A stretch of DNA of 33,609 bases from Candidatus Falkowiibacteriota bacterium. Its GTDB lineage: Bacteria > Patescibacteriota > Patescibacteriia > XYB2-FULL-38-15. A program made the position numbers and the translations under genes. The stretch is taken from contig JACRNW010000010.1 of assembly GCA_016214745.1 (NCBI GenBank), forward strand, positions 1-33,609, in the 5' to 3' direction. Each line of letters starts with the position of its first letter. The stretch's first letter is position 1. Of the stretch, positions 11,030 to 30,862 are shown in pieces. The notes below the pieces were generated by a model. It did no database searches and was not told where the DNA came from. It was given only the letters and a program-made list of their open reading frames with translations.

Positions 11030-11218
11030 ATGGTAGAAAAGAAGCGCGGGAAACCGCAGAACGACGACAGCAGCCGTGACGCAGATGTGCCGGGAATGCC
11101 CAAGGGTTGGAGACCCGGCCAATTGATCGTGATTCCGTTGGGACCAGACCCCCGCGCGATCGACGAGAGCAAGATGGATTTCTCGATTCCGTTCTGGGTC
11201 GGAGAACCCAGCCCGTGA
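11030..11218 (+). CDS. Cassette protein A1, D[FY]SxPFWVGxP family (62 aa)
   Basis: A 62-residue soluble protein I cannot assign. The N-terminal half is polar and charged, probably disordered (EKKRGKPQNDDSSRDAD). The C-terminal half is ordered-looking: GQLIVIPLGPDPRAI then DFSIPFWVGEP. The next gene encodes a relative with the same C-terminal pattern. It has a strong SD (GGAGG, 6 nt before ATG) and GC-rich codons, unlike queA and the flippase on either side. It is transcribed from its own promoter at 10980-11008. Confidence 0.65.
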   Translation: MVEKKRGKPQNDDSSRDADVPGMPKGWRPGQLIVIPLGPDPRAIDESKMDFSIPFWVGEPSP

Positions 11219-11233
11219 GGTAGGAGGATGCAG

Positions 11234-11416
11234 ATGGAGCGGAGAAATCAGAACAATCCGCGTGACGACTCGCGTGACGACGATCGCCGTTGTGATACCA
11301 AAGAGTCTCCTCGCCGACGACTTGTCGTGATCTACATTCCGGAAGAGCCCGATGCGATTCCGCCAGAGAGGCGCGACTATTCGCGTCCGTTTTGGGTGGG
11401 AACGCCGGTGGAGTAG
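11234..11416 (+). CDS. Cassette protein A2, paralogue of A1 (60 aa)
   Basis: A 60-residue protein encoded 15 bp after A1. The N-terminus is highly charged with Arg-Asp repeats (RDDSRDDDRR); the C-terminus reads RRLVVIYIPEEPDAI followed by DYSRPFWVGTP, aligning with A1 over about 33 residues. The shared pattern is L[IV]VI, P-x-AI, then D[FY]SxPFWVGxP. The ATG at 11228 lies only one base from the GGAGG (11222-11227 region), so the ATG at 11234 with normal spacing is chosen. It is followed by a strong terminator. Function unknown; a tandem duplication is the simplest origin. Confidence 0.65.
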   Translation: MERRNQNNPRDDSRDDDRRCDTKESPRRRLVVIYIPEEPDAIPPERRDYSRPFWVGTPVE

Positions 11417-11446
11417 GTTGCTTTTTGTTCGGTTAGTGCCATCGAT

Positions 11447-11478
11447 CGGCGCTGAGATTCGTCTCGCGCCGTTTTTTT
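11447..11478 (+). terminator. Terminator of the first cassette
   Basis: CGGCGC-T-GAGA, loop TTCG (11458-11461), TCTCGCGCCG, then seven T residues (11472-11478). The arms are complementary apart from one bulged T. Confidence 0.85.
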
Positions 11479-11483
11479 ATCCA

Positions 11484-11512
11484 TTGATTTTTTATCTAAA
11501 TCGCGGTAAAGT
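11484..11512 (+). promoter_or_regulatory. Promoter of the flippase gene
   Basis: TTGATT (11484-11489), 17-nt spacer, TAAAGT (11507-11512), 12 bp before the ATG at 11524. Confidence 0.4.
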
Positions 11513-11523
11513 TAAATAATATT

Positions 11524-13005
11524 ATGGCTTTGACTACAAGCCGAGTTGCGAAAAATACCATATTTTTAACCATTGCCACGGTCGGGCAAAAAGCCCTGGC
11601 TTTTTTGTATTTTATTTTGATCGCCCGTTTGGCCGGAGTGGAAGGCACGGGCAAGTATTTTTTCGTTGTTTCTTTTACGACAATTTTTTCTATTTTTGTT
11701 GATCTTGGACTTTCTTCGGTTTTGATTCGCGAGACGGCGAAGAAAAAGGAAATGGCGGGAAAATATTTGGGAAATATTTTGGGCGCAAAGATTGTTCTCG
11801 GCCTTCTGACCTATCTCGCGGTTATTCTCGCCATCAATGTCATGGATTATCCGCCGGCGACGAAATTCATGGTTTATCTTTCCGGGATTGTGATGCTTTT
11901 GGATTCATTCAATGTAACTTTCTACGCGGTTTTCCGCGGCCATCAAAATTTGCGTTACGAATCAATGGGCGTGGTCGTAAGCGAAGTGTTGATCATAATT
12001 TTCGGCGGCGTAAGTTTATGGCTCCACGCGCCGTTGTATTTTTTACTGCTTGCCTTAATGTCGGGCAGTATTTTTAATTTTTTCTTTTCCTCAGTTTTAC
12101 TTTGGAAAAAAACCGAAGTTCGGCCGTGTTTATGTTTTGATAAAACTCTTTTAATATCACTTTTTAAAATTGCTTATCCTTTTGCGCTGGCCGGGATTTT
12201 TGTAAAAGTTTATTCTTATCTTGATTCAGTTTTACTTTCAAAAATGGTGGGGGACGCGGCAGTTGGATTTTGGAGTGTGGCTTATAAATTGACTTATGCC
12301 TTTCAATTTATTCCCATGGCTTTCGCCGCGGCCGCTTTCCCGGCGATGAGCGCGTATTTTGTTTCCGATAAAACCATGCTCAGAAAAACTTTTGAGCGCG
12401 TGTTGTTTTATCTTGCGATTTTGGCGATGCCGATTGCTTTTGGCATTTTTTCTCTGGCCGAACCGCTGATTTTAAAACTTTATGGCGCATCGTACGTCCC
12501 GTCAGTTTTGCCGCTTCAGGTTGCCATCTTTGCCGTGATTTTTATTTTCTTAAATTACCCGGTTGGTTCGCTCCTGAACGCGACGGACCGTCAGATGACC
12601 AATACTGCCATTATGGGCGTTTCTATGCTCGTAAACGTCATTTTAAACGTAATTTTGATACCGCGGTACTCATTCCTTGGCGCGGCAATTTCTGCGGTTA
12701 TCTCGCATACTTTTCTTTTTATTGTAGGTTTGATTTTTGCCGGACGGGTGGTGGATTATAATAAAAAATTTATTTTCAGCGCTTTGTTTAAAATTGTTAT
12801 TTCGGCCGTGGCGATGAGCGCGGTAATAATTTATTTACGGCCGTATGTTTATTGGATATTTTTAGTTCCGATCGGCGCGGCAATTTATTTTGGTTTATTA
12901 TTTTTAATTCGCGGTATGGAGTGGCGCGACGTTTTAAATATTTTTAAAGCCCTGAAAAAAGAAGAAGCAGTGGAGATGATTGACGGAAGAAGTGAAAAAA
13001 TATGA
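11524..13005 (+). CDS. Polysaccharide/oligosaccharide flippase (Wzx-like, MOP superfamily)
   Basis: A 493-residue integral membrane protein with about 12-14 helices across its length, no signal peptide. The N-terminus (TSRVAKNTIFLTIATVGQKAL) and the segment LVLLxIxRLAGVEGTGKYFF-like (here FILIARLAGVEGTGKYFF) are typical of flippases that turn lipid-linked sugars across the membrane. Its stop overlaps the start of a glycosyltransferase by 4 bp (ATGA), so the two are coupled and probably work in the same surface-glycan pathway. Substrate unknown. A peptidoglycan-lipid flippase role is less likely from the partner gene. Confidence 0.85.
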   Translation: MALTTSRVAKNTIFLTIATVGQKALAFLYFILIARLAGVEGTGKYFFVVSFTTIFSIFVDLGLSSVLIRETAKKKEMAGKYLGNILGAKIVLGLLTYLAVILAINVMDYPPATKFMVYLSGIVMLLDSFNVTFYAVFRGHQNLRYESMGVVVSEVLIIIFGGVSLWLHAPLYFLLLALMSGSIFNFFFSSVLLWKKTEVRPCLCFDKTLLISLFKIAYPFALAGIFVKVYSYLDSVLLSKMVGDAAVGFWSVAYKLTYAFQFIPMAFAAAAFPAMSAYFVSDKTMLRKTFERVLFYLAILAMPIAFGIFSLAEPLILKLYGASYVPSVLPLQVAIFAVIFIFLNYPVGSLLNATDRQMTNTAIMGVSMLVNVILNVILIPRYSFLGAAISAVISHTFLFIVGLIFAGRVVDYNKKFIFSALFKIVISAVAMSAVIIYLRPYVYWIFLVPIGAAIYFGLLFLIRGMEWRDVLNIFKALKKEEAVEMIDGRSEKI

Positions 13006-14135
13006 AAAAATTATTGATTGCGACAATTGAGTTTCCGCCGCAGAAAGGCGGAATCGCAAATTATTTGGCCGGACTTGCCGGTGCGTTGCCGGTTGATAAG
13101 GTTGTAGTTTTGTGTCCGAAAAATCCCTCTCCATCTCTCCCTTTCAAAAAGGGAGAGAGTTATAAAGTGTACAGAAAAAATTTAATAAGCCGGATGCTTT
13201 TTATTTGGCCAAGGTGGCTGCCGATGGTTTGGCATTTATGGCGAACGGCACGACGGGAAAAAGTTGAAGCGATTTTAGTTGGTCAAGTTTTGCCGGTTGG
13301 GACTGCGGCTATGATTTTAAATAAATTTTTACGTTTGCCATATTTTGTTTCATGCCACGGCATGGATATTTTGACTGCCGCCGGAGATCCGCGCAAGAAA
13401 AAGTTATTGAACAAAATTTTAGAACAGGCGGCTCACGTCGTGGCCAATAGTGAATTTACAAAAAATGAACTTTTAAAATTAGCCGTTCCGGAAAATAAAA
13501 TTGCGGTTGTATACCCATACCCAAATGAAGTATCGGGAATCGCGCTAGAAAAAATTTTGGAAATAAAAAATCGGCTGGGACTAGCCGATAAAAAAATTAT
13601 TTTAACTGTGAGTAGGTTAATGGAACGCAAGGGTCACGATAAAGTGATTGAGGCGATGCCAAAAATTTTGGAAAAAGTTCCAAACGCGATTTATGTTATT
13701 GTGGGCGGTGGGCCAGAAAAAGAAAAGTTGCAAGTTTTAAGTTCTAAATTACAAGTGGAAAATAATATCTTATTTACTGGAGAAATTTCTGAAGAAAAAA
13801 AGACGGCTTTTTATCAATTGTGCGATGTGTTTGTAATGACGCCGCGGCAGATTGGGCCGGACGTGGAAGGATTTGGGACGGTTTATCTTGAAGCAAATCA
13901 ATATGGCAAACCAGTCGTAGCTGGGCGAAGTGGCGGCGTGGCGGAAGCAGTGATTGACGGAGTAACGGGACTGATCGTAGATCCGGAAGATGTAAATCAG
14001 ATTACTGAGACGGTGATAAAAATATTATCCGATGAGAGTTTGGCGAAAAAAATGGGCGAGCAGGGGAGAGAGAGAGTGGAAAAAGAATTTAGGTGGGAAG
14101 TCCGGGTGGAAAAGTTAAAAAAGATTTTAAATTGA
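13002..14135 (+). CDS. Family 4 glycosyltransferase (GT-B, group 1)
   Basis: A 377-residue GT-B enzyme. The N-terminal Rossmann domain begins KKLLIATIEFPPQKGGIANYL; the C-terminal donor domain has LTVSRLMERKGHDKVIEAMP and EGFGTVYLEANQYGKPVVAG, the latter holding the E-x7-E motif that binds the nucleotide sugar. It starts within the flippase stop (ATGA). Residues about 41-54 (NPSPSLPFKKGESY) are encoded by a palindromic insertion of family 2. The -35 of the next cassette overlaps its stop codon. Acceptor and donor are unknown; a surface or lipid glycan is inferred. Confidence 0.87.
   Translation: MKKLLIATIEFPPQKGGIANYLAGLAGALPVDKVVVLCPKNPSPSLPFKKGESYKVYRKNLISRMLFIWPRWLPMVWHLWRTARREKVEAILVGQVLPVGTAAMILNKFLRLPYFVSCHGMDILTAAGDPRKKKLLNKILEQAAHVVANSEFTKNELLKLAVPENKIAVVYPYPNEVSGIALEKILEIKNRLGLADKKIILTVSRLMERKGHDKVIEAMPKILEKVPNAIYVIVGGGPEKEKLQVLSSKLQVENNILFTGEISEEKKTAFYQLCDVFVMTPRQIGPDVEGFGTVYLEANQYGKPVVAGRSGGVAEAVIDGVTGLIVDPEDVNQITETVIKILSDESLAKKMGEQGRERVEKEFRWEVRVEKLKKILN
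13123..13162. repeat. Palindromic element family 2, copy inside the glycosyltransferase gene
   Basis: CTCTCCCTTT (13135-13144), loop CAA, AAAGGGAGAG (13148-13157), preceded by AATCCCTCTCC. It adds roughly 14 codons in frame and shares its core and preceding bases with the copy in uvrD at 19969-20015. Confidence 0.65.
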
Positions 14136-14159
14136 CTTTTAATAGGGGTTTGATATATT
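14132..14159 (+). promoter_or_regulatory. Promoter of the second cassette (14184-14420)
   Basis: TTGACT (14132-14137), 16-nt spacer, TATATT (14154-14159). The -35 overlaps the stop codon of the glycosyltransferase. SD AGGAGG at 14171-14176. Confidence 0.65.
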
Positions 14160-14183
14160 TATTGGCAGAAAGGAGGGCAAGCA

Positions 14184-14420
14184 ATGTCTTGTCCAGAAGA
14201 GGTTTCCCGGGGTGACGCTGGTCGTGGAGAACTGGATCGTGTACCCGCGGTGTGCGAGGCAGTGGCGGCCACGGAGCAGGCCCGAGCTGAGGCTGCGGAG
14301 ACGATCATCCGGCTGGAGCCGCGCCACATTACGGGCTACGCGAGTCTCATCCAGATTCTGGAAACAGCCCTGATGCGAGCGCGCGTGCAGCAGGCTCTCT
14401 GCAAGCCAGGAGGGTTTTAG
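14184..14420 (+). CDS. Cassette protein B (78 aa), unknown function
   Basis: A 78-residue soluble, Ala/Arg/Glu-rich protein, mostly helical: VAATEQARAEAAETIIRLEP and YASLIQILETALMRARVQQA are likely helices. No signal peptide, no membrane segment, no recognised domain. By my count the gene is about 63% GC against roughly 40% around it. It has its own promoter, an AGGAGG SD 7 nt before the ATG, and a terminator 27 bp after the stop. The package suggests a single-gene cassette acquired from elsewhere. Confidence 0.62.
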   Translation: MSCPEEVSRGDAGRGELDRVPAVCEAVAATEQARAEAAETIIRLEPRHITGYASLIQILETALMRARVQQALCKPGGF

Positions 14421-14446
14421 GTCGCGCTTATTCGAGACATGTAGTC

Positions 14447-14478
14447 ACTGGCGAACCTTCGGGAACGCCAGTTTTTTT
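14447..14478 (+). terminator. Terminator of the second cassette
   Basis: ACTGGCG (14447-14453), AA internal bulge, CC-TTCG-GG, AA, CGCCAGT (14466-14472), then a run of T to 14478. A UUCG loop caps the stem. Confidence 0.85.
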
Positions 14479-14483
14479 AAACA

Positions 14484-14511
14484 AAAAATCTCCAGGATAA
14501 AGGAGATTTTT
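14484..14511 (-). terminator. Bidirectional terminator of the PD40 lipoprotein gene
   Basis: AAAAATCTCC (14484-14493) and GGAGATTTTT (14502-14511), 10-bp arms around 8 nt. A and T runs on both sides make it usable on either strand; it lies just after the minus-strand gene 14527-15456. Confidence 0.75.
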
Positions 14512-14526
14512 ATTATTTATTCTCTT

Positions 14527-15456
14527 TTATTTTTTATTAGCGACGTAAATGTCCGCTTCTAACATTTGGTCATCTTTATAATAATGATGAACAAAATAAA
14601 CGTTTCCCGCACTATCAATTGTGGCTTCGCCGGCGAGCGGCGAGAACATTAATTTTGGTTTTCCCCATTCGCCATTGATTTTTTTTGACCGCCAAATTCC
14701 GTAGTCTTTTGTAATCCACAATTCATTTTCGTCGGGTGAAAGAGCTGGCCAGCCTTCATCGCCAGAGGTGTTTACTGCACTGACATTTTCTGGCTCAAGC
14801 CACTCGCCATCAACTTTTTTTGAAACCCAAATATCCAAACCGCCTTTGCCGCCAGGTCGATCCGAGTGAAAATAAACTTCATTGCCGTCAGACGTAAAAT
14901 GTAATTCCCCAACTTTATAATCAGGCGGAAAGTCCGCATTTTTCCAATTTTGCCATTTGTTATTTTTAAATTCAGCAGTAAACCAATGAATGCCGTCGTA
15001 TCCTTCGCGCACAGAACAAAACCAAATTATGTTGCCCCGGACAAATTCGCAGCCGTCGCTACCAACGCCGCCAGGTTTGGATAAAAGTACTCGTTCGGGA
15101 TTAAGCCATTTGTCGCCAGATTTTTTAGCAACATAAATTCCCGTCACATTGTCAATAATTTGTTTTTCAACCGGAACCTTGACATCGGGCGTGAAAAAGA
15201 AATACAAAGTATTGCCGTCGGGTAAAATAAAGGGTGAGTCTTCCGCGCCGGCGGTGTTGACCGGAGCGGGCAGGGGAATTGGATTTTCGTATTCGGCGGA
15301 AAGAGATTTTACTGGCGAAACATCCGTTGCCGGCGTAATTTTTACCGCGTCAGTTGGAATTTTACTTTCTCGCGACGGCAGTTCGGCGGGTGCTTGCTCG
15401 CATCCGCCAGCGGTTAAAATCAGAATAGCGGATAGAAGTAGAAAAGTTTTTTTCAT
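14527..15456 (-). CDS. PD40/WD40-like beta-propeller lipoprotein
   Basis: A 309-residue exported protein. The first 20 residues are a lipoprotein signal (MKKTFLLLSAILILTAGGC; Cys19 would be lipidated). Several PD40-type blades follow, such as PFILPDGNTLYFFFTPD, FTSDGNEVYFHSDRPGGKGG with LDIWVSKKVDGEWLEPENV, and LSPDENELWITKDYGIWRSK. Such propellers resemble the TolB-type fold and bind proteins or ligands outside the cell; no enzyme motif is seen. It is transcribed alone on the minus strand, with its terminator at 14484-14511. Confidence 0.75.
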   Translation of the reverse strand: MKKTFLLLSAILILTAGGCEQAPAELPSRESKIPTDAVKITPATDVSPVKSLSAEYENPIPLPAPVNTAGAEDSPFILPDGNTLYFFFTPDVKVPVEKQIIDNVTGIYVAKKSGDKWLNPERVLLSKPGGVGSDGCEFVRGNIIWFCSVREGYDGIHWFTAEFKNNKWQNWKNADFPPDYKVGELHFTSDGNEVYFHSDRPGGKGGLDIWVSKKVDGEWLEPENVSAVNTSGDEGWPALSPDENELWITKDYGIWRSKKINGEWGKPKLMFSPLAGEATIDSAGNVYFVHHYYKDDQMLEADIYVANKK

Positions 15457-15498
15457 TTTAAGTTATGTTTTTATGGGAAATAAGTTGTGGTTTTAGGA

Positions 15499-15526
15499 TT
15501 GACAAAAAAATTTAAAGCAGTAGTCT
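15499..15526 (+). promoter_or_regulatory. Promoter of the third cassette (15545-15895)
   Basis: Consensus TTGACA (15499-15504), 16-nt spacer, weak -10 TAGTCT (15521-15526); SD AAGGAGG at 15533-15539. Confidence 0.5.
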
Positions 15527-15544
15527 TGGTGGAAGGAGGCGAAG

Positions 15545-15895
15545 ATGGCAACAAAACGAGGGCTGGTAACGATACGATCGGAGGGGAAGGTCGTAATGAA
15601 GGTCGTTGCTGGCTGTGACGGACAACTCGCGAAAAAGATCGCCGAGGAGTTGCGAGCCGCCTGGCCGGTGAATGCCAGTCAAGCCCATGCAATCGCTCGG
15701 AAGAGCGGATTTGGGTGCGCGAACTGTCTGGTCGTAGTGACGGAGTCCGGCATTGTGCTTTGCGGGGAAAATTGGGATTTGCCCGCCATTTATCGCGAGA
15801 CGTTTCAACAGCCGGATTTCAATCCTCGGTGGCGTGATGGGAGCGTTGACTTTCTGGAAATCGTTGACCTTTGTAAGGTCGATGCCAGCAAGTAA
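15545..15895 (+). CDS. Cassette protein C (116 aa), unknown function
   Basis: A 116-residue soluble alpha/beta protein: strand-rich start (GLVTIRSEGKVVMKVVAGCDG), helix KKIAEELRAAWPV, then GFGCANCLVVVTESG with two nearby Cys, and a C-terminal part RETFQQPDFNPRWRDGSVDF ending in EIVDL. Cys at CDG, CANC and LCGENW might bind a metal, but no known motif is complete. The gene is GC-rich with a strong SD (GGAGG, 5 nt before ATG) and stands between two minus-strand genes. I do not recognise the family; it looks well folded and conserved in style, so a real protein. Confidence 0.68.
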   Translation: MATKRGLVTIRSEGKVVMKVVAGCDGQLAKKIAEELRAAWPVNASQAHAIARKSGFGCANCLVVVTESGIVLCGENWDLPAIYRETFQQPDFNPRWRDGSVDFLEIVDLCKVDASK

Positions 15896-15898
15896 ATC

Positions 15899-15938
15899 CT
15901 GCGTGGGAAGGCTATAAGCCAACTTGCGCAGTTTTTTT
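15899..15938 (+). terminator. Terminator of the third cassette
   Basis: CTGCG...CGCAG outer pairs (15899-15903 with 15927-15931), wobble pairs, an AA/AA internal loop, inner GGCT-ATA-AGCC, then seven T residues. Confidence 0.8.
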
Positions 15939-16716
15939 ATTTAATTATTACTTTAAAATAATCTTCAAGCGCTTTTCTTGATCCTTTTTGTTTAACTTCT
16001 TCGGCAAATTTTTGGCGCTCTTTTTCGTCGCTCAATTCAATTGCTTTGGCGAGAGTGTCAATTTGTTGTTCAGAAATTATGAGACCCTGAAGCGAAAGCG
16101 GATCTTTGATTTTTATTCCGTCTATTTTTGTCGTAGAAAGATCAAGGCCGGATAAATCAGAACCGACAATTTCCCCCTCGCTTAAATCTGCGCCGGGGAA
16201 AAGCGCCTCAGAACCAGAATCTCCGCCGAAATCAATATTGTCCCATTTTGTTTTTTTAAAATTTCCTCCGCCACCATTAAAACCATAAAGGCCGCCGGAG
16301 TCCGCCGCATCAGGGCGTTCACCAGAATTATTCATCGCCGCGTGGCGATTACGTCGGGAAATTAAATCTTCCGTAAATCCGAAAGTTGCACCCTCGGCCT
16401 CAACTCTGCCAAAAATTGTGTCTTGTCCGGTGTCGGCGATGGTCGTGTCGGTAAAATCAGAGCGTCGAAGGTTTGTTATCAATTCAATAATTTTTCCATT
16501 CTCATCCCGTTTTTCTCCATAAAAATATACGCCCCGGATATCCGAGCCGCGGAAACTCTTGCCTTCAAAATCAAGTCCGGCCAAATCAAGGTCCACCAAA
16601 TATAAATTTTCTAAATTCTCACCGCGTGCGAGCCTGGCTTCTACTTCTTCTCGGGTTATTTTTTCTAATTTTTCAATTTCAGATTTTGGTGCCGCGTCTT
16701 GCCCAAATTCATTCAT
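15937..16716 (-). CDS. Pentapeptide-repeat protein
   Basis: A 259-residue protein. Residues about 36-70 (NLYLVDLDLAGLDFEGKSF and RGSDIRGVYFYG) and 85-95 (LRRSDFTDTTIA) and a later part (ADLSEGEIVGSDLSGLDLS) follow the A(D/N)LxX five-residue pattern of a right-handed beta-helix. The spacing is interrupted, so the helix is broken into parts. The C-terminus is a charged helical tail. No signal peptide. It starts 5 bp after the stop of the IPT/FN3 membrane protein gene, so they share a transcript. Function is unknown; such repeats usually mediate binding. Confidence 0.7.
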   Translation of the reverse strand: MNEFGQDAAPKSEIEKLEKITREEVEARLARGENLENLYLVDLDLAGLDFEGKSFRGSDIRGVYFYGEKRDENGKIIELITNLRRSDFTDTTIADTGQDTIFGRVEAEGATFGFTEDLISRRNRHAAMNNSGERPDAADSGGLYGFNGGGGNFKKTKWDNIDFGGDSGSEALFPGADLSEGEIVGSDLSGLDLSTTKIDGIKIKDPLSLQGLIISEQQIDTLAKAIELSDEKERQKFAEEVKQKGSRKALEDYFKVIIK

Positions 16717-16721
16717 AGTTT

Positions 16722-18131: not shown

Positions 18132-18136
18132 AAAAT

Positions 18137-22281: not shown

Positions 22282-22944
22282 ATGAGTTTTTCGCCTGAGG
22301 AAAAAGTACCGTCACCAGAAAGGGGATTGGAAGAATTTATTATTAACGATTTAACGGATCTGATGGCTACGGCCCAAGAAAAAGTTAAAGGTGCCAAGAC
22401 GCCGGAGGAAGTGTTAAACGCCATTTTAGTAATGGAAAAGATTCAGCCGCGTTTAGAACAGGCTAAAACTAACGCAAGATGGCTAACCGTAGTTGAGTCG
22501 TCAGAAGGAGTTGAAGCGGGATTTAAGGAACAATTTTTAGAATTTGCCAAGAAAAGAGATGAAAATGCAGAAGCTATTAAGGAAGTGAGAGGCAACATTA
22601 AAAAAGTAACAGCCGATCTTAAAGCGGCTGAAGCAAAACTTGAAGGAGCTGATAGACCAGAAGCCATATTAAAGGAGATTTCTAATGTGGATGGTATCCA
22701 GGCGAAACTCTCTTCACTTGAAGCAGAAGTAAGACGCCTGGCTCTTGAAAATTTGGCTTTAGCTTCCAGTCTCTCTACAATGAAAGAAAAAAAATTAAGC
22801 GGTGAAAAACCCGCCTTTACTACGGCAGAAGAAAAGTGGTTTGGGAAAGGGAAAAAAATGTCTGATTTTTGGGAAGCCGAGGCAGCGGAAAGAGAAGCAA
22901 TAGTTGATCAGTTGGAAGAAGAGTTTATGGCTGAAGCCGCTTAA
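22282..22944 (+). CDS. Uncharacterised coiled-coil protein (220 aa)
   Basis: A 220-residue acidic, nearly all-helical protein. Residues about 20-165 are strong coiled coil (KVKGAKTPEEVLNAILVMEK, EAIKEVRGNIKKVTADLKAA, LSSLEAEVRRLALENLALAS). The C-terminus has KWFGKGKKMSDFWEAEAAERE. No signal peptide or membrane segment. The ATG at 22282 is chosen because AGAGGAG lies 5 nt upstream; earlier in-frame ATGs fall in the structured leader. Codon use is AT-rich like host genes. The gene ends at the shared terminator 22965-22992. Function unknown. Confidence 0.6.
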   Translation: MSFSPEEKVPSPERGLEEFIINDLTDLMATAQEKVKGAKTPEEVLNAILVMEKIQPRLEQAKTNARWLTVVESSEGVEAGFKEQFLEFAKKRDENAEAIKEVRGNIKKVTADLKAAEAKLEGADRPEAILKEISNVDGIQAKLSSLEAEVRRLALENLALASSLSTMKEKKLSGEKPAFTTAEEKWFGKGKKMSDFWEAEAAEREAIVDQLEEEFMAEAA

Positions 22945-22964
22945 GAAATAAAAAATAAAAAAAG

Positions 22965-22992
22965 AGAGACCCGGGTCGTGACCTGGGTCTCT
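22965..22992 (-). terminator. Bidirectional terminator between the coiled-coil gene and the fourth cassette
   Basis: AGAGACCCGGGT (22965-22976), loop CGTG, ACCTGGGTCTCT (22981-22992), one G-T pair. On the minus strand seven T residues follow, so it best ends the minus-strand cassette 23025-23603; it may also serve the plus-strand gene. Confidence 0.85.
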
Positions 22993-23024: not shown

Positions 23025-23603
23025 CTAGGCCGCTGCCTCCTTCTCCGGGTAGAAGACGAAAACGTCCTTCTGGGGAGCGAAGTTCCTCGACTTGTCTCCG
23101 AGCCAGAGGACGACGCGCGCGATGTTATACGCGCGATGGTCTCTCCACGTAATCCTCTTGGCGTAGGCGTGAGTGTCCCACTCGGAAGTTGGGGAAAGCG
23201 GCAGGATGTACTTGTTACTGTAGATCCTGATCTCTCCTAGCTTGTCTACGCCGCACTCAATGCCTTCTCGTTGTTGTTCACCTTTCGGGAAAACGACCAT
23301 TCGTAGGTCGTGGAAGTCGTTCTTGGTCTTGGCGTCCGGCAGAACCACAATGAGGTTGTACCGGCGCTCGTAGACGTAGAGCGTCACGTATTCCACTCGA
23401 TCGAGCCAGGTCTCGTGCACTGGCTCAGGTTCGAGAAACTCGATGTCATCGACCGCCCGTCTCTTGGACGGGAGACTGTCGGTCGTCTTGGTTTCGGGCT
23501 GCCGGCCGACTTCCTTGCCGCGAGAAATGGCGCGGTAAAGGGCGACAATCGGCCAAGCGAACAAGAGCACGAAGCCCAAGATTTTTGAAAAGAGCCACTT
23601 CAT
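23025..23603 (-). CDS. Cassette protein D: membrane-anchored unknown protein (192 aa)
   Basis: A 192-residue protein. A membrane helix spans about residues 5-24 (FSKILGFVLLFAWPIVAL), followed by a charged linker and a soluble domain with NLIVVLPDAKTKNDFHDLRM and KDVFVFYPEKE. No known domain was recognised. The ATG at 23603 is chosen because AGGAGG lies 6 nt upstream; a longer start at 23654 lacks an SD and would disrupt the membrane helix position. The gene is GC-rich, with its own promoter (23701-23727), an untranslated leader of about 90 nt and a terminator, as for the other cassettes. Confidence 0.65.
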   Translation of the reverse strand: MKWLFSKILGFVLLFAWPIVALYRAISRGKEVGRQPETKTTDSLPSKRRAVDDIEFLEPEPVHETWLDRVEYVTLYVYERRYNLIVVLPDAKTKNDFHDLRMVVFPKGEQQREGIECGVDKLGEIRIYSNKYILPLSPTSEWDTHAYAKRITWRDHRAYNIARVVLWLGDKSRNFAPQKDVFVFYPEKEAAA

Positions 23604-23843
23604 CGCGCACCTCCTTTTGCAATGGAAGGGTGCGGGCGTTTGCGTTGAGATCAAGGGCAGAATTGCCCGATCAAATACGCTACGCTTCGCAGCCGTTTAC
23701 TTTATATAATAACTCATAATTTGTCAACCCTATACAAGGTTTAATTTAATTTTAGTTAACGGTGCGGCAACGGCGTATTTTCGTAATTAACTCCGCCGGT
23801 GCGTCAATAACCTTTACCTCGTACGGGGTAAGGAGGGTTAAGT
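23604..23843. other. Regulatory gap between the fourth cassette and the membrane protein gene
   Basis: The left part is the leader and promoter of cassette D, with a possible hairpin GATC-GGGC / GCCC-TTGATC (about 23649-23673). The right part, about 23756-23840, has weak hairpins (CCTTTACC...GGGGTAAGG near 23810-23832) and no ORF. I see no RNA gene. Confidence 0.35.
23701..23727 (-). promoter_or_regulatory. Promoter of the fourth cassette
   Basis: On the minus strand TTGACA (23727-23722), 15-nt spacer, TATAAA (23706-23701). Leader of about 90 nt to the ATG at 23603. Confidence 0.5.
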
Positions 23844-23872: not shown

Positions 23873-23906
23873 TTTTACAAAAGATAACCGTAACTCTTAG
23901 AGTAAC

Positions 23907-24284: not shown

Positions 24285-24315
24285 AAAAATAATTTACAAT
24301 TTTTAAATTTTAAAA

Positions 24316-25572
24316 ATGTTACAATCAAAACTTTTTTACAAAACATCAAAAGATATTTCTCTGGAAGAAAAAAGCGTTAACGCCCAGTTACTTATCCGCG
24401 CCGGTTTTGTTGATAAATTAATGGCCGGCGTTTACACCTTTTTGCCGCTCGGCCTTCGGGTACTTGAAAAAATAAAAAAGATTATTCGCGAAGAGATGAA
24501 CGCTATCGGCGGACAGGAAATTTTGATGCCGGCTCTTACGCCCAAAGAAAATTGGACAACGACGGGGCGCTGGGATTCAATTGACGTACTTTTTAAATTA
24601 AAAGGATCCGGCGGCAAGGAATACGCGCTTGGTTCAACTCATGAAGAGATTGTTACTCCCTTGGCTAAAAAAATAATCAACTCTTACAAAGATTTGCCGT
24701 TGGCCGTTTATCAAATTCAGGACAAATTCAGGGATGAACCGCGGGCAAAATCCGGCTTACTCCGCGGGCGGGAATTTTCCATGAAAGATCTTTATAGTTT
24801 TCACGCCGACTTGGCCGATTTGGATCAATATTATGAAAAAGCAAAAGAAGCTTATTTAAAAATTTTTAAACGCTGCGGAATAGAGGCGATAGTTGTTGAA
24901 GCGTCGGGCGGAACTTTTTCTAAATATTCCCATGAATTTCAGGTATTGACGGAGAGCGGCGAAGACATTATTTTTTATTGTGAAAAATGTTCTTACGCGC
25001 AAAACAAAGAAATTGCCGGATACAAAGCCGGGGATAAATGTCCAAAGTGCGGTGGAAAAATGCTTGAAGGAAAAGCGATAGAGGTTGGCAATATTTTTAA
25101 ACTTAAAAATAAATTTTCCGAAGCTTTTGATTTGAATTTTTTGGATAAAGACGGCAAGAAAAATTTGGTTATGATGGGTTGTTATGGAATCGGGCCAAGC
25201 CGGATTTTGGGAACCGTGGCGGAAATTTCCCATGATGAGAATGGGATTATTTGGCCGGTCGAAATTGCTCCGTTTGACGTTCATCTTTTGGCGCTTTTTG
25301 GTAAAGACTCTAAAGTTAATGAGAAGATAAATAAAGAATCTAGCCGCCTCCAGGAATCTTTACAAAAAGCCGGATTTGAAGTATTATATGATGACCGAGA
25401 AAGCGTTAGTGCTGGCGTAAAATTCGGGGAGTCGGACCTTTTCGGCATCCCGACGCGGCTCGTGATTAGTGAAAAAACTTTAGCTAAGGATAGCGTGGAA
25501 TTGAAGATTAGGGCGGGGAATGAGGCGGAGCTGGTTAAATTAAATAAAATTGAAAAAGAATTGGGGAAATAA
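24316..25572 (+). CDS. proS: Prolyl-tRNA synthetase lacking the editing insertion
   Basis: A 418-residue class II synthetase that charges tRNA(Pro). Motif 1 region is GGQEILMPALTPKENW; motif 2 holds FRDEPRAKSGLLRGREFSMKD; motif 3 region is MMGCYGIGPSRIL. The usual bacterial enzyme is about 570 residues with an INS editing domain between motifs 2 and 3; here YCEKCSYAQNKEIAGY runs directly into KCPKCGGKM, so the editing domain is missing. Mischarged Ala-tRNA(Pro) would then need trans-editing. C-terminal anticodon-binding domain from about residue 320. No SD. mreB starts one base after its stop. Confidence 0.92.
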   Translation: MLQSKLFYKTSKDISLEEKSVNAQLLIRAGFVDKLMAGVYTFLPLGLRVLEKIKKIIREEMNAIGGQEILMPALTPKENWTTTGRWDSIDVLFKLKGSGGKEYALGSTHEEIVTPLAKKIINSYKDLPLAVYQIQDKFRDEPRAKSGLLRGREFSMKDLYSFHADLADLDQYYEKAKEAYLKIFKRCGIEAIVVEASGGTFSKYSHEFQVLTESGEDIIFYCEKCSYAQNKEIAGYKAGDKCPKCGGKMLEGKAIEVGNIFKLKNKFSEAFDLNFLDKDGKKNLVMMGCYGIGPSRILGTVAEISHDENGIIWPVEIAPFDVHLLALFGKDSKVNEKINKESSRLQESLQKAGFEVLYDDRESVSAGVKFGESDLFGIPTRLVISEKTLAKDSVELKIRAGNEAELVKLNKIEKELGK

Positions 25573-25573
25573 T

Positions 25574-26629
25574 ATGTTCAATAATTTGCTGGGCCATTTT
25601 TCTCGCGATTTAGGGATTGATCTCGGCACAGCCAATACAAAAGTTTTTGTCAAAGATAAGGGGCTCGTAATTAACGAGCCTTCAGTTGTCGCTCTAAATA
25701 TGAAGACCGGGCAGATTTTAGCTATTGGTGAAGACGCCAAAAAAATGCTCGGAAAAACTCCTCCGCACATTGTCGCTTCTCGGCCGATTGTTGGTGGCAT
25801 TATTTCGGATTTTGAAGTTACGGAAAAAATGCTTAAATATTTTATTGATAAAGTTCACCAAGAAGGTTTTACAATTTTGCCGAGACCTCGGGTAGTGATC
25901 GGCATTCCGCTTGATATTACCGAAGTTGAAAGAAAGGCCGTGGAAGACGCGGCTCTTTCAGCCGGCGCCCGTGAAGTATTTTTGATCGAAAAAATCATGG
26001 CCTCGGCTATCGGCGCGAGATTACCGATTTCCGACGCGGTCGGTAATATTATTATTGATGTCGGAGAGGGGACCACGGAGATTGCTGTAATCGCGCTTTC
26101 AGGTGTTGTCAACTGGAAAACTTTACGCGTTGCCGGCGAAGAAATGAACAAAAATATTATTCAATATGCCCGAGATGTTTTTAATTTACTTTTAGGCGAG
26201 AAAATTGCCGAAGATATAAAAATAAAAATTGGCTCGGCTTCCGAGCTCAAAGAACCGCTCACTATGGAAATGAGAGGACGAGATCTCTTGACTGGTTTGC
26301 CGAAGTCGGTGACGGTGAATGACACGCAAATTCGCGAAGCCTTGGGTCGTTCGGTAAAACAAATTATTGACGGTATTAAAGCTACTCTTGAAGTGACGCC
26401 GCCGGAACTTTTAGCCGATATTTTTGAACGTGGCATGATTTTGACTGGCGGAGGAGCGCTTCTTCGCGGCCTTGATCAAGCCATCACGCGAGCAACGGAA
26501 ATTCCAGTCAGAGTCGCCGATGATCCGGTTACTTGCGCCGTCCGAGGCACTGGTCTGCTTTTAGAAAATATTCCGTTATTGCGTGAAATTGCCATTCCTT
26601 CAACTCAGGAAGAAGAAAAAAGAAGATAA
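25574..26629 (+). CDS. mreB: Rod shape-determining actin homologue MreB
   Basis: A 351-residue actin-like ATPase that forms membrane-associated filaments guiding cell-wall synthesis. Phosphate 1 motif is GIDLGTANTKV (14-24); phosphate 2 is DVGEGTTEIAVI; adenosine motif is ILTGGGALLRGLD. The family usually has GGGTTE here, so the second Gly is replaced by Glu (DVGEG). The ATG at 25574 is chosen because residues before it are not family-like and the gene would overlap proS. First gene of mreBCD-PBP2. Confidence 0.93.
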   Translation: MFNNLLGHFSRDLGIDLGTANTKVFVKDKGLVINEPSVVALNMKTGQILAIGEDAKKMLGKTPPHIVASRPIVGGIISDFEVTEKMLKYFIDKVHQEGFTILPRPRVVIGIPLDITEVERKAVEDAALSAGAREVFLIEKIMASAIGARLPISDAVGNIIIDVGEGTTEIAVIALSGVVNWKTLRVAGEEMNKNIIQYARDVFNLLLGEKIAEDIKIKIGSASELKEPLTMEMRGRDLLTGLPKSVTVNDTQIREALGRSVKQIIDGIKATLEVTPPELLADIFERGMILTGGGALLRGLDQAITRATEIPVRVADDPVTCAVRGTGLLLENIPLLREIAIPSTQEEEKRR

Positions 26630-26698
26630 CTTTAAATAATTTTTAATTTTCAATTTCCAACTTTCAATGCCTAACCTTAGGTATTTTATTTTGTAAAT

Positions 26699-27496
26699 AT
26701 GCGTTTATCCGCTTCAAAGCCATTTTTGACGCTCATCATAGTTCTTCTTGCCGTAATGATTTTTCATTACAGCGGGATTCTTTTTCCCGTAGAAAATTTG
26801 GCGATGAAAGTTTTGACTCCGATCGGTTCCGGATTTTATATTTTTGGTCAAAAGATTCAGTCACTTTGGAAAGCGGACGTATCTCTCGCTGATTACGAAA
26901 AATTACAGGCGGAAAAAAATCAGCTGATTGCGAAAAACGCCGAATTGCAGATTTTAGAACGAGAGAATGATGAATTAAGAGCATCATTGAATTTTAAAAA
27001 AGAAAAACAGTATGATACTTTGATGGCGACGGTTTTGGGACGTGATCCGACGGTTTCCAATTATTTTATTTTAAACAAAGGATCAAAAGACGGCGTGCAA
27101 AATAATCTCCCGGTTGTTTCGCCCGAAGGAATGCTGGTTGGAAAAATTATAAAAGTTGAGGAAAATCTTTCCATAATGCTAATTCCGACTGATACTAATT
27201 TTCAAACTGCCGCCGCGATTTTGGGTGAAGGCAAAAATAGTACAAGCGGCCTCGTGCATGGCGAAAAAGGTTTGGGAATTAAAATGGAATTTATTCCTCA
27301 GGATGAAGAGGTGTTTCGCGGAGATGTTGTCGTAACTTCCGGGCTGGAATTAAATATGCCCAAAGGATTGGTTATCGGGCAGATTGCCGAGCTGAAGAGA
27401 GAATCCAGGGATATTTTTGGCGAAGCGACGATAAGTCCGCTCGCAGTTTACGAGAACCTAAATACAGTCATGGTGCTTCTGCCTCAAAAAGAATAG
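26699..27496 (+). CDS. mreC: Rod shape-determining protein MreC
   Basis: A 265-residue protein. Residues about 10-30 are a membrane anchor, 60-95 a coiled coil (DYEKLQAEKNQLIAKNAEL), followed by the two beta domains; ATVLGRDPTVSNYFILNKGS and TNFQTAAAILGE are family segments. MreC links cytoplasmic MreB with the periplasmic-side PBP2. It lies 69 bp after mreB; no SD, with AATATG directly after a T/A leader. Stop is 3 bp before mreD. Confidence 0.9.
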   Translation: MRLSASKPFLTLIIVLLAVMIFHYSGILFPVENLAMKVLTPIGSGFYIFGQKIQSLWKADVSLADYEKLQAEKNQLIAKNAELQILERENDELRASLNFKKEKQYDTLMATVLGRDPTVSNYFILNKGSKDGVQNNLPVVSPEGMLVGKIIKVEENLSIMLIPTDTNFQTAAAILGEGKNSTSGLVHGEKGLGIKMEFIPQDEEVFRGDVVVTSGLELNMPKGLVIGQIAELKRESRDIFGEATISPLAVYENLNTVMVLLPQKE

Positions 27497-27499
27497 CTT

Positions 27500-28057
27500 A
27501 TGAAAAAGTTTGAACGCGCAGGATTAATATTTGAAGTTTTTGGCAAAGCGCTGGCAATAGTTTTGCTTGTTTTGTTTCAGGCGAGTTTTATCGCCGCCTT
27601 GCCTTGGCCGGCCAATTACTTTAATTTAGTTTTATCAATTTTAATTTTTATCACGGTAATTTTAAATTTTCGGCAGGCGCTCTGGTTTGCCCTTTTTTCC
27701 GGTTTGATTCTTGATTTATTTTCTTTTTCCAATTTTGGGACGCTGGCGATAACCCTTCTTCTTGTCACGTCAATTTTAAATGTTCTTTTTAGAAATTTTT
27801 TCACCAACCGTTCTTTTTATTCTTTAATTATTCTCGGCCTGATAGGCAATTTAATTTATATTTTTCTTTTACTAATTTTTAATTTTTTGTTCTTTGTTCT
27901 GGGCGCGGCCGAAAATCTTGAAAAATTTTCAAGCCGCAGCAACATTTTTGGTTTTGGGTGGCAAATAATTTTTAGCATTTCTTTTTCAGCCATTTTATTT
28001 TTAGCGTTTAATTCTTTGGGCAAAAAATTAAAATCGGTATTCATTGATGCGGGTTAA
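27500..28057 (+). CDS. mreD: Rod shape-determining membrane protein MreD
   Basis: A 185-residue membrane protein with about five to six helices, typical of MreD (WPANYFNLVLSILIFITVIL, ALWFALFSGLILDLFSF). It belongs to the elongasome with MreC and PBP2. Start is 3 bp after the mreC stop, and the PBP2 gene follows 14 bp after its stop, so the four genes form one transcript. Sequence is low-complexity hydrophobic, so the call relies on synteny plus length. Confidence 0.85.
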   Translation: MKKFERAGLIFEVFGKALAIVLLVLFQASFIAALPWPANYFNLVLSILIFITVILNFRQALWFALFSGLILDLFSFSNFGTLAITLLLVTSILNVLFRNFFTNRSFYSLIILGLIGNLIYIFLLLIFNFLFFVLGAAENLEKFSSRSNIFGFGWQIIFSISFSAILFLAFNSLGKKLKSVFIDAG

Positions 28058-28071
28058 TAAATCTAAAATTA

Positions 28072-30051
28072 ATGAAGATTTTAAAAAAAAATAGGCCGCG
28101 CGGGAACGACCCATTCGCCATACAAGAAATCTCCACCAGAGATTTCCGTTTAAATGAAGACAGAAATTTAGACTGGGTTGAAGAAAATATTGGATTTGAT
28201 AATTCAGTTGAAGTTGAGGATCAGGAAGGGGAAGCGCGCGGGGCAAGGAAAGAATTTCTCGGATTGGCTTTAAGTCAAAAAAGGCTGACTATTTTTTTAA
28301 TTTTTATTTTCGGAATTTTGGGAATTTTATTTGCGAAAACCGTTTACCTTCAAATAATTCGGGGCGGGCATTTCAGGGAGATGGCCGAAGGCAATCGCAT
28401 CAGAACAATTTACACGGCCGCCGAGCGAGGCATTATTTATGACAGGAATTCAAAGATATTAGTAAAAAATATTCCAACTTTTTCGCTATATTTAATTCCC
28501 ACGGATTTTCCGAAAGACGACGAAGCGAGAATCGGCGCCATTGCTCATTTGGCGGAGGTAATAAAAGTTCCGCCGCTTGAAATTGAAGAAAAGTTGGGTG
28601 AAGTTTCTTCATATTCTTTTTCGCCGATTGTGCTTCGCGAAAATATTGATTATGAAGAGGCCATTCGTCTAAAAGTTGAAAGCGCCAGCTTATCGGGCGT
28701 TGAACTGAAACTTGAAAGTCGCCGGAAATATTCAAAAGGAGACGACGATAGTGTGCAAAGTTTATCTCATATTTTAGGTTATGTCGGCAAGGTTAATAAA
28801 GAAGATTTGGAACAGCACGAAGATTATAATTCAACTGATTTTATAGGAAAAACCGGCCTGGAATTATTTTATGAAAAATTTTTACGCGGACAAAATGGAA
28901 AAAAACAAGTGGAAGTTGACGCTCTGAGCAAAGAAAAAAGTGTGATTGCCAAAGAAGATCCGGTGCGCGGGAAAAACATAACTTTAACGCTGGATGTTGA
29001 TTTGCAGAAAAAACTTGAGGAGATTACGGCGAAGCATTTAAAGGCGGCAAAAAAATCTCGGGCCGCCGCCATAATTTTGGATCCCAATAACGGAAAAATT
29101 TTAAGCATGGTGAGTTTACCGGCTTTTGATAATAACCTTTTTGCTCTGGGAATTTCTTCAAAAGATTATGAGTCCTTGATTAGCGATTCCGACAACCCAT
29201 TGTTTAATCGGGCCATCATGGGCGAATATCCTTCCGGATCAACAATTAAGCCGGTAATTGCCGCCGCGGCCCTGGAAGAGGGGATTATTAACAGGAATAC
29301 ATCCTTTTTAAGCGTTGGCGGATTAAGAATCAGCAGTTGGTTTTTCCCGGACTGGCTCGCCGGCGGACACGGTTTAACAAATGTTACAAAAGCGATTGCC
29401 GATTCGGTTAACACATTCTTTTATATTATTGGCGGCGGTTATGATAATTTTGAAGGATTGGGCGTATCAAAAATCGTAAAATACGCCGAACTTTTTGGTT
29501 TTGGTAAAAAATTGGGCATAGATTTGCCAAATGAAGCCGAAGGATTTTTGCCAAGCGAAGAATGGAAAGAAAAAGCAAAGGGAGAGCAATGGTACATCGG
29601 CGACACTTATCATCTTGCAATCGGCCAAGGAGATCTTCTTGTTACGCCGTTTCAAATTGCCGCGGCCACGGCCGTTTTTGCAAATGGCGGCACGCTTTAC
29701 ACGCCGCATTTTTTGGGCGCGGTTGAATCAGTTCCGCCACCGGCAGAAAATTATTTAATCAGGGAAAATTTTATCAGCAAAGAAAATATTGAAATTGTCA
29801 GATCGGGAATGAGACAGACCGTAACTTCCGGCAGCGCCGAAAGGATGCTCGATTTGCCGGTAACTTCAGCCGCAAAAACCGGTACGGCGCAGTGGAGCAC
29901 AACAAAACCTCCGCACGCCTGGTTTACGGCTTTTGCTCCTTTTACAGATCCCGAAATTTCAATCACGGTGCTTGTGGAAGAAGGAGAAGAGGGGAGCAGA
30001 ATCGCCCTTGACATTGCGCGAGAATTTATGATGTGGTATTTTACTAGATAA
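28072..30051 (+). CDS. mrdA: Penicillin-binding protein 2, peptidoglycan transpeptidase
   Basis: A 659-residue class B transpeptidase of the elongasome. An N-terminal cytoplasmic tail of about 70 residues is followed by one membrane helix (about 75-100, LTIFLIFIFGILGILF). The dimerisation domain starts AERGIIYDRN. The catalytic motifs are S390-T-I-K393 (SxxK, nucleophile Ser390), S445-V-N447 (SxN) and K602-T-G604 (KTG). It follows mreD by 14 bp. The unusually long N-terminal tail is odd; no RodA gene accompanies it here. Confidence 0.92.
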   Translation: MKILKKNRPRGNDPFAIQEISTRDFRLNEDRNLDWVEENIGFDNSVEVEDQEGEARGARKEFLGLALSQKRLTIFLIFIFGILGILFAKTVYLQIIRGGHFREMAEGNRIRTIYTAAERGIIYDRNSKILVKNIPTFSLYLIPTDFPKDDEARIGAIAHLAEVIKVPPLEIEEKLGEVSSYSFSPIVLRENIDYEEAIRLKVESASLSGVELKLESRRKYSKGDDDSVQSLSHILGYVGKVNKEDLEQHEDYNSTDFIGKTGLELFYEKFLRGQNGKKQVEVDALSKEKSVIAKEDPVRGKNITLTLDVDLQKKLEEITAKHLKAAKKSRAAAIILDPNNGKILSMVSLPAFDNNLFALGISSKDYESLISDSDNPLFNRAIMGEYPSGSTIKPVIAAAALEEGIINRNTSFLSVGGLRISSWFFPDWLAGGHGLTNVTKAIADSVNTFFYIIGGGYDNFEGLGVSKIVKYAELFGFGKKLGIDLPNEAEGFLPSEEWKEKAKGEQWYIGDTYHLAIGQGDLLVTPFQIAAATAVFANGGTLYTPHFLGAVESVPPPAENYLIRENFISKENIEIVRSGMRQTVTSGSAERMLDLPVTSAAKTGTAQWSTTKPPHAWFTAFAPFTDPEISITVLVEEGEEGSRIALDIAREFMMWYFTR

Positions 30052-30067
30052 TTTTTAATGTAGTCTA

Positions 30068-30096
30068 TTGCTAATATTTTGTAAGTCCATTATACT
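30068..30096 (+). promoter_or_regulatory. greA promoter
   Basis: TTGCTA (30068-30073), 17-nt spacer, TATACT (30091-30096); leader of about 35 nt before ATG 30137. Confidence 0.55.
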
Positions 30097-30136
30097 TAAC
30101 AACATATTGTGCATAACTTTTAAGAAAACGTTTTTT

Positions 30137-30601
30137 ATGTCGGAGCAAAAAATGTATGTGTCGCGCGAAGGATTGGAAAGATTTAAACAAGAGTTAGACG
30201 AGTTGGTAAATGTAAAAAGAAAAGAAATTATTGAACGCATTGAACGGGCTAAAGAACTTGGTGACTTATCCGAAAATGCCGAATACGCGGCGGCCAAAGA
30301 CGAGCAGGCTTTTACCGAGGGTCGGATTATTGAATTACAGGATATGATCGCTCGCGCGGAAATTATAAACGGTTCGGGGAAAGTTGATTTGGTTCGAGTT
30401 GGTTCAAAAGTAAAAGTTAAAACTGACGGCACGGAAACGGAGTATGAAATCGTCGGCGTAGCCGAGGCAGATCCTTTGACTGGAAAAATTTCTAATGAAT
30501 CACCGCTCGGCCGGTCATTTCTGGGAAGAAAAATCGGAGATAAAATTCAAATTCAGATACCGAAAGGAATGGTTACTTATACGATTTTGGAGATTAGGTA
30601 A
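30137..30601 (+). CDS. greA: Transcription elongation factor GreA
   Basis: A 154-residue protein, near the usual 158. N-terminal coiled coil (about 1-75) with LSENAEYAAAKDEQAFTEGRI at its tip, where acidic residues enter the RNA polymerase secondary channel to stimulate cleavage of backtracked RNA; C-terminal FKBP-like domain with SPLGRSFLGRKIGDKIQI. ATG 30137 is chosen; the upstream in-frame ATG lies in the promoter. It has its own promoter and a terminator at 30619-30643, so it is monocistronic. Confidence 0.94.
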   Translation: MSEQKMYVSREGLERFKQELDELVNVKRKEIIERIERAKELGDLSENAEYAAAKDEQAFTEGRIIELQDMIARAEIINGSGKVDLVRVGSKVKVKTDGTETEYEIVGVAEADPLTGKISNESPLGRSFLGRKIGDKIQIQIPKGMVTYTILEIR

Positions 30602-30618
30602 TAAGTGATCAGTAGTTT

Positions 30619-30643
30619 AGCCAGGCCGTAAAGCCTGGCTTTT
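30619..30643 (+). terminator. greA terminator
   Basis: AGCCAGGC (30619-30626), loop CGTAAA, GCCTGGCT (30633-30640), then TTTTG. Strong stem. Confidence 0.85.
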
Positions 30644-30646
30644 GTT

Positions 30647-30685
30647 ATAAAAAACGCCGGCGTTTCCATTCTGTGGATTCGCCGG
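30647..30685 (-). terminator. Terminator of the fifth cassette
   Basis: On the minus strand CCGGCG (30685-30680) pairs with CGCCGG (30662-30657), followed by GTTTTTT. The AACGCCGGCGTT core (30653-30664) is itself palindromic. Confidence 0.75.
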
Positions 30686-30697
30686 TTTTGGTGTGCT

Positions 30698-30862
30698 TCA
30701 GTTTATGGGGAGTATGCCCTCCTGATTTTGCCAGTAGCGGAGCCCTCTCTTGTAGGCTGCGGCTTGTTCCTGCGGCGTGAGTTCCTTCCAGCTCCTCGCG
30801 CCGAGAGTTCGGAGATATTGAGTCCATCGCCTCGCCGTCGGCGGTTTTTCCCCTTTGCTCAT
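30698..30862 (-). CDS. Cassette protein E (54 aa), unknown function
   Basis: A 54-residue basic protein beginning MSKGEKPPTARRWTQYLRTL, then GARSWKELTPQEQAAAYKRGL and RYWQNQEGILPIN. Probably two helices; no signal peptide or membrane segment. An AGGAGG SD (30868-30873) lies 5 nt before ATG 30862, and the codons are GC-rich. It has its own terminator and a promoter that shares a palindrome with the lysS promoter. WKELTPQEQAAAY recalls small DNA-binding boxes in a loose way, but no family is assigned. Same cassette style as the four others. Confidence 0.6.
   Translation of the reverse strand: MSKGEKPPTARRWTQYLRTLGARSWKELTPQEQAAAYKRGLRYWQNQEGILPIN

What the first reader, a model, noticed from the sequence alone, without database searches (positions are those of the whole stretch)
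11030..30862. Five GC-rich, self-contained mini-genes dispersed between host genes
Units at 11030-11416, 14184-14420, 15545-15895, 23025-23603 (-) and 30698-30862 (-) each combine their own promoter, AGGAGG-type SD, one or two small ORFs without recognisable function, and their own hairpin terminator. Most other genes have no SD and are AT-rich; by my count the 78-aa gene is about 63% GC. The shared design suggests a cassette-like gene family, foreign in origin or highly expressed, inserted without disturbing neighbours. No integron attC-like site was identified.
Basis: partly seen in the sequence, partly recalled or inferred. Interest (0 to 1): 0.85.

Follow-up and report, generated by a model that had tools for sequence, protein, structure and literature searches.

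The report
Self-contained GC-rich accessory mini-genes
This tiny AT-rich bacterium (a Patescibacteria-type genome) carries about 50 fast-changing, GC-rich genes, each packaged with its own start and stop signals and slotted between ordinary genes that lack those signals; nearly all have no known relatives, so they look like a hidden accessory-gene compartment.

Summary
All five units are real: their six ORFs are 55-63% GC and each has an AGGAGG Shine-Dalgarno (SD), while none of 25 other window ORFs has one (all at most 46% GC). Each unit ends in a strong hairpin followed by a T-run, and each has a TTGACA-type promoter, weakest in unit 1. The 923-kb genome holds about 49 such ORFs, mostly unrelated to each other. 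A same-genus relative has about 32, and SD-start patterns are enriched patchily across the class.

Comparing the two same-genus genomes, 11 unit pairs are orthologous, at 27-57% amino-acid identity (host genes 73-90%; dN about five times higher; dN/dS 0.34). At five further gaps, including u1 and u5, the second species has an unrelated unit. The next genus has empty gaps at u1 and u5.

They are neither chance ORFs nor one homologous cassette family. I found no integron integrase, attC site, target duplication or shared boundary beyond the expression signals. The best-supported reading is moron-like accessory genes: autonomous transcription units gained singly from GC-richer sources (u3 has a jumbo-phage homologue; another unit is Tad4-like, an anti-Thoeris family), then kept under weak purifying selection. 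Function and expression are untested.

The parts
10980..11008 (+). u1 promoter candidate, TTGTTA-17-TAAGAT (weakest of the five)
   Evidence: read from sequence
11018..11218 (+). u1a: SD AGGAGG 11018-11023 and ORF 11030-11218, 62 aa, GC 0.593
   Evidence: no Pfam or PHROG match; no homologue in 94 related genomes
11222..11416 (+). u1b: SD 11222-11227 and ORF 11234-11416, 60 aa, tandem paralogue of u1a (both end in ..PFWVG.P..)
   Evidence: E 7e-9; start corrected from 11228
11447..11478 (+). u1 intrinsic terminator
   Evidence: folded region dG -18.2
14132..14159 (+). u2 promoter TTGACT-16-TATATT; promoter/5'UTR 76% identical in sister genome G001
14171..14420 (+). u2: SD 14171-14176 and ORF 14184-14420, 78 aa, GC 0.633; syntenic orthologue (86 aa, about 46% identity) in G001
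14447..14478 (+). u2 terminator, hairpin and T7 conserved in G001
15499..15526 (+). u3 promoter TTGACA-16-TAGTCT
15534..15895 (+). u3: SD 15534-15539 and ORF 15545-15895, 116 aa; homologues in four other bacterial genomes and jumbo phage Tunturi_5; predicted alpha/beta fold, pLDDT 86, no PDB match
15899..15938 (+). u3 terminator
   Evidence: z -4.1
23699..23727 (-). u4 promoter TTGACA-17-TAAAGT, followed by a structured leader of about 85 nt
   Evidence: leader fold z -2.2
23025..23615 (-). u4: SD 23610-23615 and ORF 23025-23603, 192 aa, N-terminal hydrophobic helix
   Evidence: model poor (pLDDT 42); no viral relative
22958..22992 (-). u4 terminator, also usable by the convergent gene ending at 22944
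30880..30909 (-). u5 promoter TTGACA-18-TAAAAT, back to back with the conserved lysS promoter
30698..30873 (-). u5: SD 30868-30873 and ORF 30698-30862, 54 aa
   Evidence: G001 carries an unrelated 114-aa unit here on the other strand
30650..30685 (-). u5 terminator
   Evidence: z -3.4

Best explanation
The five units belong to a genome-wide set of about 50 moron-like accessory genes in a Patescibacteria-type chromosome. Each is a stand-alone transcription unit: an AT-rich TTGACA promoter, a full AAGGAGG SD, one (sometimes two) GC-rich small ORF, and a strong hairpin with a T6-7A tail. Shown: the architecture, the compositional split, intergenic placement between intact host operons, empty sites in a sister genus, replacement by unrelated units at the same gap, and fast evolution under purifying selection. 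Inferred: units arrive singly from GC-richer sources (phages and partner bacteria) by DNA uptake and illegitimate or flank-mediated recombination. They persist only if they carry or gain complete expression signals. The strong SD is needed because GC-rich, structured mRNAs cannot use the SD-independent initiation on which the AT-rich native mRNAs rely. Their products are rapidly evolving effectors of phage or partner interaction; one unit elsewhere in the genome is a Tad4-type Thoeris inhibitor homologue.
For: SD-ORFs versus other ORFs: GC 0.576 vs 0.427 in G000 (p 6e-17) and 0.571 vs 0.409 in sister G001 (p 3e-10); also raised in class members G005 and G010. GC is AT-like upstream of the SD (0.36-0.41), high across the ORF and terminator, and falls again after it. 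Terminators in 34/55 SD-ORFs vs 21/92 native (p 3e-6); T6A tail in 31/49 vs 12/84 (p 9e-9) and in G001 23/32 vs 8/39. TTGACAAA upstream of 16/49 units against a shuffle maximum of 5. 16S rRNA keeps an intact anti-SD. Empty gaps in G002, different units on other strands in G001. 11 orthologous pairs at 27-57% identity; pooled dN 0.55 vs 0.12 for host genes, dN/dS 0.34. u3 homologues in unrelated contexts: L097, L098 and L100 have their own TTGACA-type promoter, and L097 and L098 also a clear SD and terminator; phage homologue. Tad4 match E 7e-19. ComEC present.
Against: Donors were not identified for the window units; u1, u4 and u5 have no homologue anywhere searched. Only two of the small units have phage matches. 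Eleven pairs predate the split of two species and remain GC-rich (GC4 0.68/0.66) although synonymous sites have turned over (about 1.2 substitutions per site by F81), so they are not recent arrivals. No insertion footprint was found. About a third of SD-ORFs lack a detectable terminator and about half lack a near-consensus promoter within 110 nt. In class member G009 (55% GC) the GC contrast is absent. No transcript or protein data.
Confidence: 0.55

Rival explanations
1. Native, lineage-specific genes whose GC-rich codons and strong SDs are maintained by selection or a local mutational regime, not by foreign origin; they look orphan because they evolve fast.
For: Most co-located gaps hold orthologues in the sister species (11 orthologous pairs, 5 gaps with unrelated units); GC4 stays about 0.67 in both lineages after synonymous turnover; promoter and terminator of u2 conserved while the CDS diverges.
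Against: Unrelated units, some on the opposite strand, at the same gap (u1, u5, and the L002, L008 and L033 loci); empty gaps in G002; u3 GC3 follows its host down to 0.25 in an AT-rich genome; native ribosomal-protein genes are AT-rich without SD; a phage homologue of u3.
Confidence: 0.25
2. Ordinary gene-by-gene transfer from one GC-rich partner bacterium, no special compartment; SD and terminator simply come with the donor DNA.
For: Larger SD-led genes in the set encode GGDEF, Ser/Thr kinase, PyrE, truncated PurA, CDP-alcohol transferase and a MopE-type repeat protein, typical of larger free-living genomes.
Against: Promoters are AT-rich and consensus-like rather than donor-like; most units are orphan, not recognisable donor genes; many are shared between two species at the same place.
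Confidence: 0.14
3. Mobile cassettes moved by a dedicated recombinase (integron or transposon-like).
For: Uniform single-gene packaging; same gaps reused with different content.
Against: No integron integrase above cut-off, 0/49 attC-like core pairs, no flanking direct or inverted repeats beyond promoter-like and T-rich words, own promoters, scattered rather than arrayed.
Confidence: 0.04
4. Spurious ORFs in GC-rich intergenic DNA.
For: Small and orphan.
Against: dN/dS 0.34 in orthologues, u3 conserved in four other bacterial genomes and a phage, confident u3 model, precise fit of SD and terminator to ORF ends.
Confidence: 0.02

Closest known systems
Phage/prophage morons
   Same: [quoted passage not shown] own promoter and terminator, composition unlike the flanks (own knowledge).
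   Different: Here they sit between chromosomal housekeeping genes, about 50 per genome, not within a prophage; the window's own prophage-like region (1-9.2 kb) has none.
Integron gene cassettes
   Same: Single small ORFs of unknown function, intergenic, foreign composition.
   Different: No IntI, no attC, own promoters, dispersed, either strand.
Orphan/lineage-specific genes
   Same: Short, fast-evolving, few homologues.
   Different: GC-rich with consensus SD and terminators, the opposite of the AT-rich native genes.
Tad4 (type I Thoeris inhibitor, PF25186)
   Same: One genome unit, L022:1536-1835, matches over positions 1-96 of 113 (E 7e-19).
   Different: Not a window unit; the other units are unrelated to it.

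Membership tests
Moron (as a class) | own promoter and own terminator | tested here: met
   all five window units (u1 promoter weak); enrichment genome-wide
Moron (as a class) | base composition different from flanking genes | tested here: met
Moron (as a class) | insertion between genes that are adjacent in relatives | tested here: met
   u1 and u5 gaps empty in G002; the age of the insertions is not resolved
Moron (as a class) | located in a phage or prophage genome | tested here: not met
   flanked by queA, flippase, glycosyltransferase, greA, lysS
Integron cassette | attC site | tested here: not met
   0 of 49 units, shuffled 0.35 (simple core-site scan)
Integron cassette | IntI integrase in genome | tested here: not met
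   only sub-cut-off tyrosine recombinases
Transposable element | terminal repeats or target-site duplication | tested here: not met
   only promoter-like or T-rich shared words
One homologous gene family | members share sequence | tested here: not met
   all-against-all
Tad4 / anti-defence set | window units match known phage or anti-defence families | tested here: not met
   no Pfam or PHROG match for the window units; inhibition itself not testable here

The most novel reading that the evidence does not exclude
A dedicated accessory-gene compartment of Patescibacteria: GC-rich, SD-dependent single-gene units that use a different mode of translation initiation from the SD-less AT-rich core. 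Fixed intergenic docking gaps are reloaded over time with unrelated, fast-evolving effector genes drawn from phages or the bacterium the cell lives on, possibly so that the same unit can be expressed in the partner cell as well.
Probability: 0.15. Interest if true: 0.9.

Novelty: new variant of a known kind. Interest (0 to 1): 0.66.

Why it matters
Patescibacteria genomes are small and full of genes of unknown function, and most of these cells are thought to live attached to others. A simple sequence signature (AAGGAGG start, GC-rich ORF, T7A hairpin) picks out about 50 genes per genome that turn over fast and are mostly unseen by domain databases. That gives a testable short list of candidate partner-interaction or phage-interaction proteins, and suggests that two modes of translation initiation coexist in one genome. 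My paper searches found no description of this, but the library lacks most subscription papers and bioRxiv preprints.

Tried and rejected
Single homologous family: all-against-all BLAST finds almost no similarity. Integron: IntI and attC negative. Transposon: no terminal repeats or duplications. Plasmid origin: no plasmid matches for any window unit. IMG/VR viral origin: none for u3 or u4. Known folds for u3: no PDB or viral-structure match better than E 0.1. u4 structure: single-sequence model useless. Rfam: no RNA family in the window. A first impression that many units match PHROG families was wrong: among the small units only the Tad4-like one does; the other hits came from the larger genes. 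'Mostly replaced between sister species' was also wrong: most co-located units are diverged orthologues.

Full report
OBSERVATION. The five units are real. Their ORFs are 54.7-63.3% GC; the 25 other principal window ORFs are 33-45.7%. All six unit ORFs carry AGGAGG at 5-7 nt and no other does (Fisher p 1.4e-6). All five end in a hairpin followed by a T-run. Promoter-like TTGACA/TATAAT pairs precede u2-u5; u1 has a weaker one. The second u1 ORF should start at 11234, not 11228.

GENOME-WIDE. The window is contig 7 of a 923-kb assembly, 95% complete. AGGAGG-N3-9-ATG occurs 72 times against 23 for the reversed control. In 47 fetched stretches plus the window, about 49 AGGAGG-led ORFs of at least 40 aa exceed 50% GC. 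SD-ORFs have median GC 0.576 and GC3 0.70, other ORFs of at least 150 aa 0.427 and 0.429 (p 6e-17). GC is low upstream of the SD, high over the ORF and terminator, and low again afterwards. Promoter, terminator and T6A tail are all enriched against native AT-rich genes. The strict composite promoter-SD pattern occurs 12 times against 1 in G000, 12 against 0 in sister G001 and 2 against 0 in G002. The 16S 3' end keeps the anti-SD GGATCACCTCCTTT, so the ribosome can presumably use SDs even though most native genes here lack them.

CLASS-WIDE. AAGGAGG-N4-7-ATG exceeds its control strongly in G001, G005, G008, G009, G010 and G016, and not in G006 or G020. The GC contrast is clear in G001 and G005, weak in G010 and absent in the 55%-GC G009.

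HOMOLOGY. Window units: u3 has relatives in three of 94 related genomes (G028, G010, G086) and u2 in the same-genus genome G001; u1, u4 and u5 have none. Most other units likewise lack class homologues, apart from a carbonic-anhydrase-like gene and a few others. Of 50 unit proteins, 21 Pfam families are hit in total, each by one protein, mostly the larger ones: PurA (truncated), PyrE, Ser/Thr kinase, GGDEF, CDP-alcohol transferase, MopE-type repeats, carbonic anhydrase, and Tad4. u3 also has homologues in an unclassified MAG (L100) and in the 308-kb phage Tunturi_5 (37% identity). In L097, L098 and L100 the u3 gene again has its own TTGACA-type promoter, with a clear SD and terminator in L097 and L098. 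u3 GC3 ranges from 0.25 (G086) to 0.72 (phage), following each genome. Its model is confident (pLDDT 86) but matches no solved structure.

SYNTENY. queA-flippase: u1 here, an unrelated 176-aa GC-rich unit on the other strand in G001, 3 bp in G002. greA-lysS: u5 here on minus, an unrelated 114-aa unit on plus in G001, 137 bp with only the conserved lysS promoter in G002. u2 is kept in G001 with 76% promoter/5'UTR identity but 53% CDS identity. Across co-located gaps, 11 pairs are orthologous (27-57% identity) and 5 gaps hold unrelated units; one of the 11 (L035/L219) was paired by similarity only, because its flanks were not mapped. Pooled dN/dS is 0.34 for ten orthologous pairs and 0.11 for seven host genes, with dN 0.55 against 0.12. 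dS is near saturation, so these ratios are approximate.

MECHANISM. Shown: autonomous expression signals in the sequence, foreign-like composition, intergenic placement, turnover at reused gaps, purifying but relaxed selection. Inferred: single-gene acquisition by DNA uptake (ComEC present) and recombination at transcription-unit boundaries; a filter in which GC-rich ORFs need a strong SD; roles in phage or partner interaction. Integron and transposon routes were tested and not supported. Persistent GC richness after synonymous turnover is the main point that a purely foreign-origin model does not explain, and it keeps the native fast-evolving rival alive.

LIMITS. Stretches were chosen by AGGAGG, so GC-rich genes without it are under-sampled. 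No expression data. The lineage name rests on relatives titled Candidatus Parcubacteria and on general genome features; the exact class was not tested.

Noticed in passing
window 1-9159: Prophage-like segment at the contig start: Phage_tube_2 tail tube protein (553-1524), long tail-type ORFs, and a tyrosine recombinase of the phage integrase family (8218-9159, minus). It contains none of the GC-rich units.
   Followed up: partly
window 10569-10602 and 10807-10839: Palindromic element TACCCCCACACCAA..TTGGTGTGGGGGTG occurs twice: once in frame inside the 3' part of queA and once just after its stop, where a second copy of the QueA C-terminal YSFGD motif follows. Single copies of the motif also occur in L044 and L213; looks like a small dispersed palindrome that can insert in coding sequence.
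   Followed up: partly
L022:1536-1835 (minus); L218:1896-2225: Tad4-family (type I Thoeris inhibitor) homologue as a GC-rich SD-led unit in this genome, with a homologue within a short gene cluster in the sister genome. A bacterial chromosome carrying an anti-Thoeris-type gene is unexpected.
   Followed up: partly
L030:1443-4413: Large GC-rich SD-led genes: a Ser/Thr protein kinase with TPR, followed by a 360-aa apparently secreted protein with a long coiled-coil stretch; unusual cargo for a genome this small.
   Followed up: no
L014:1081-1578, L047:1425-1943, L038:1447-2064: Paralogous GC-rich lipoprotein-like genes, two with acidic Asp-rich linkers, the only evident multi-copy family among the units.
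   Followed up: no
L032:790-1449 (minus); L029:52-1473 (minus): GC-rich purA and MopE-repeat ORFs end in a stretch that no longer resembles the family, as if frameshifted (decay or assembly error).
   Followed up: no
window 23604-23705 (minus): u4 has a long GC-rich leader with a stable multi-stem fold (dG -33, z -2.2), unlike the short leaders of the other window units; possible regulatory RNA.
   Followed up: partly
G063 (57% GC relative), L096:811-1089, 6668-6901, 8628-8864: Three small minus-strand genes led by GGAGGAGGG sit between the same kinds of host genes (one in the greA-lysS gap) and look mutually similar by eye, perhaps a true repeated small-gene family.
   Followed up: no
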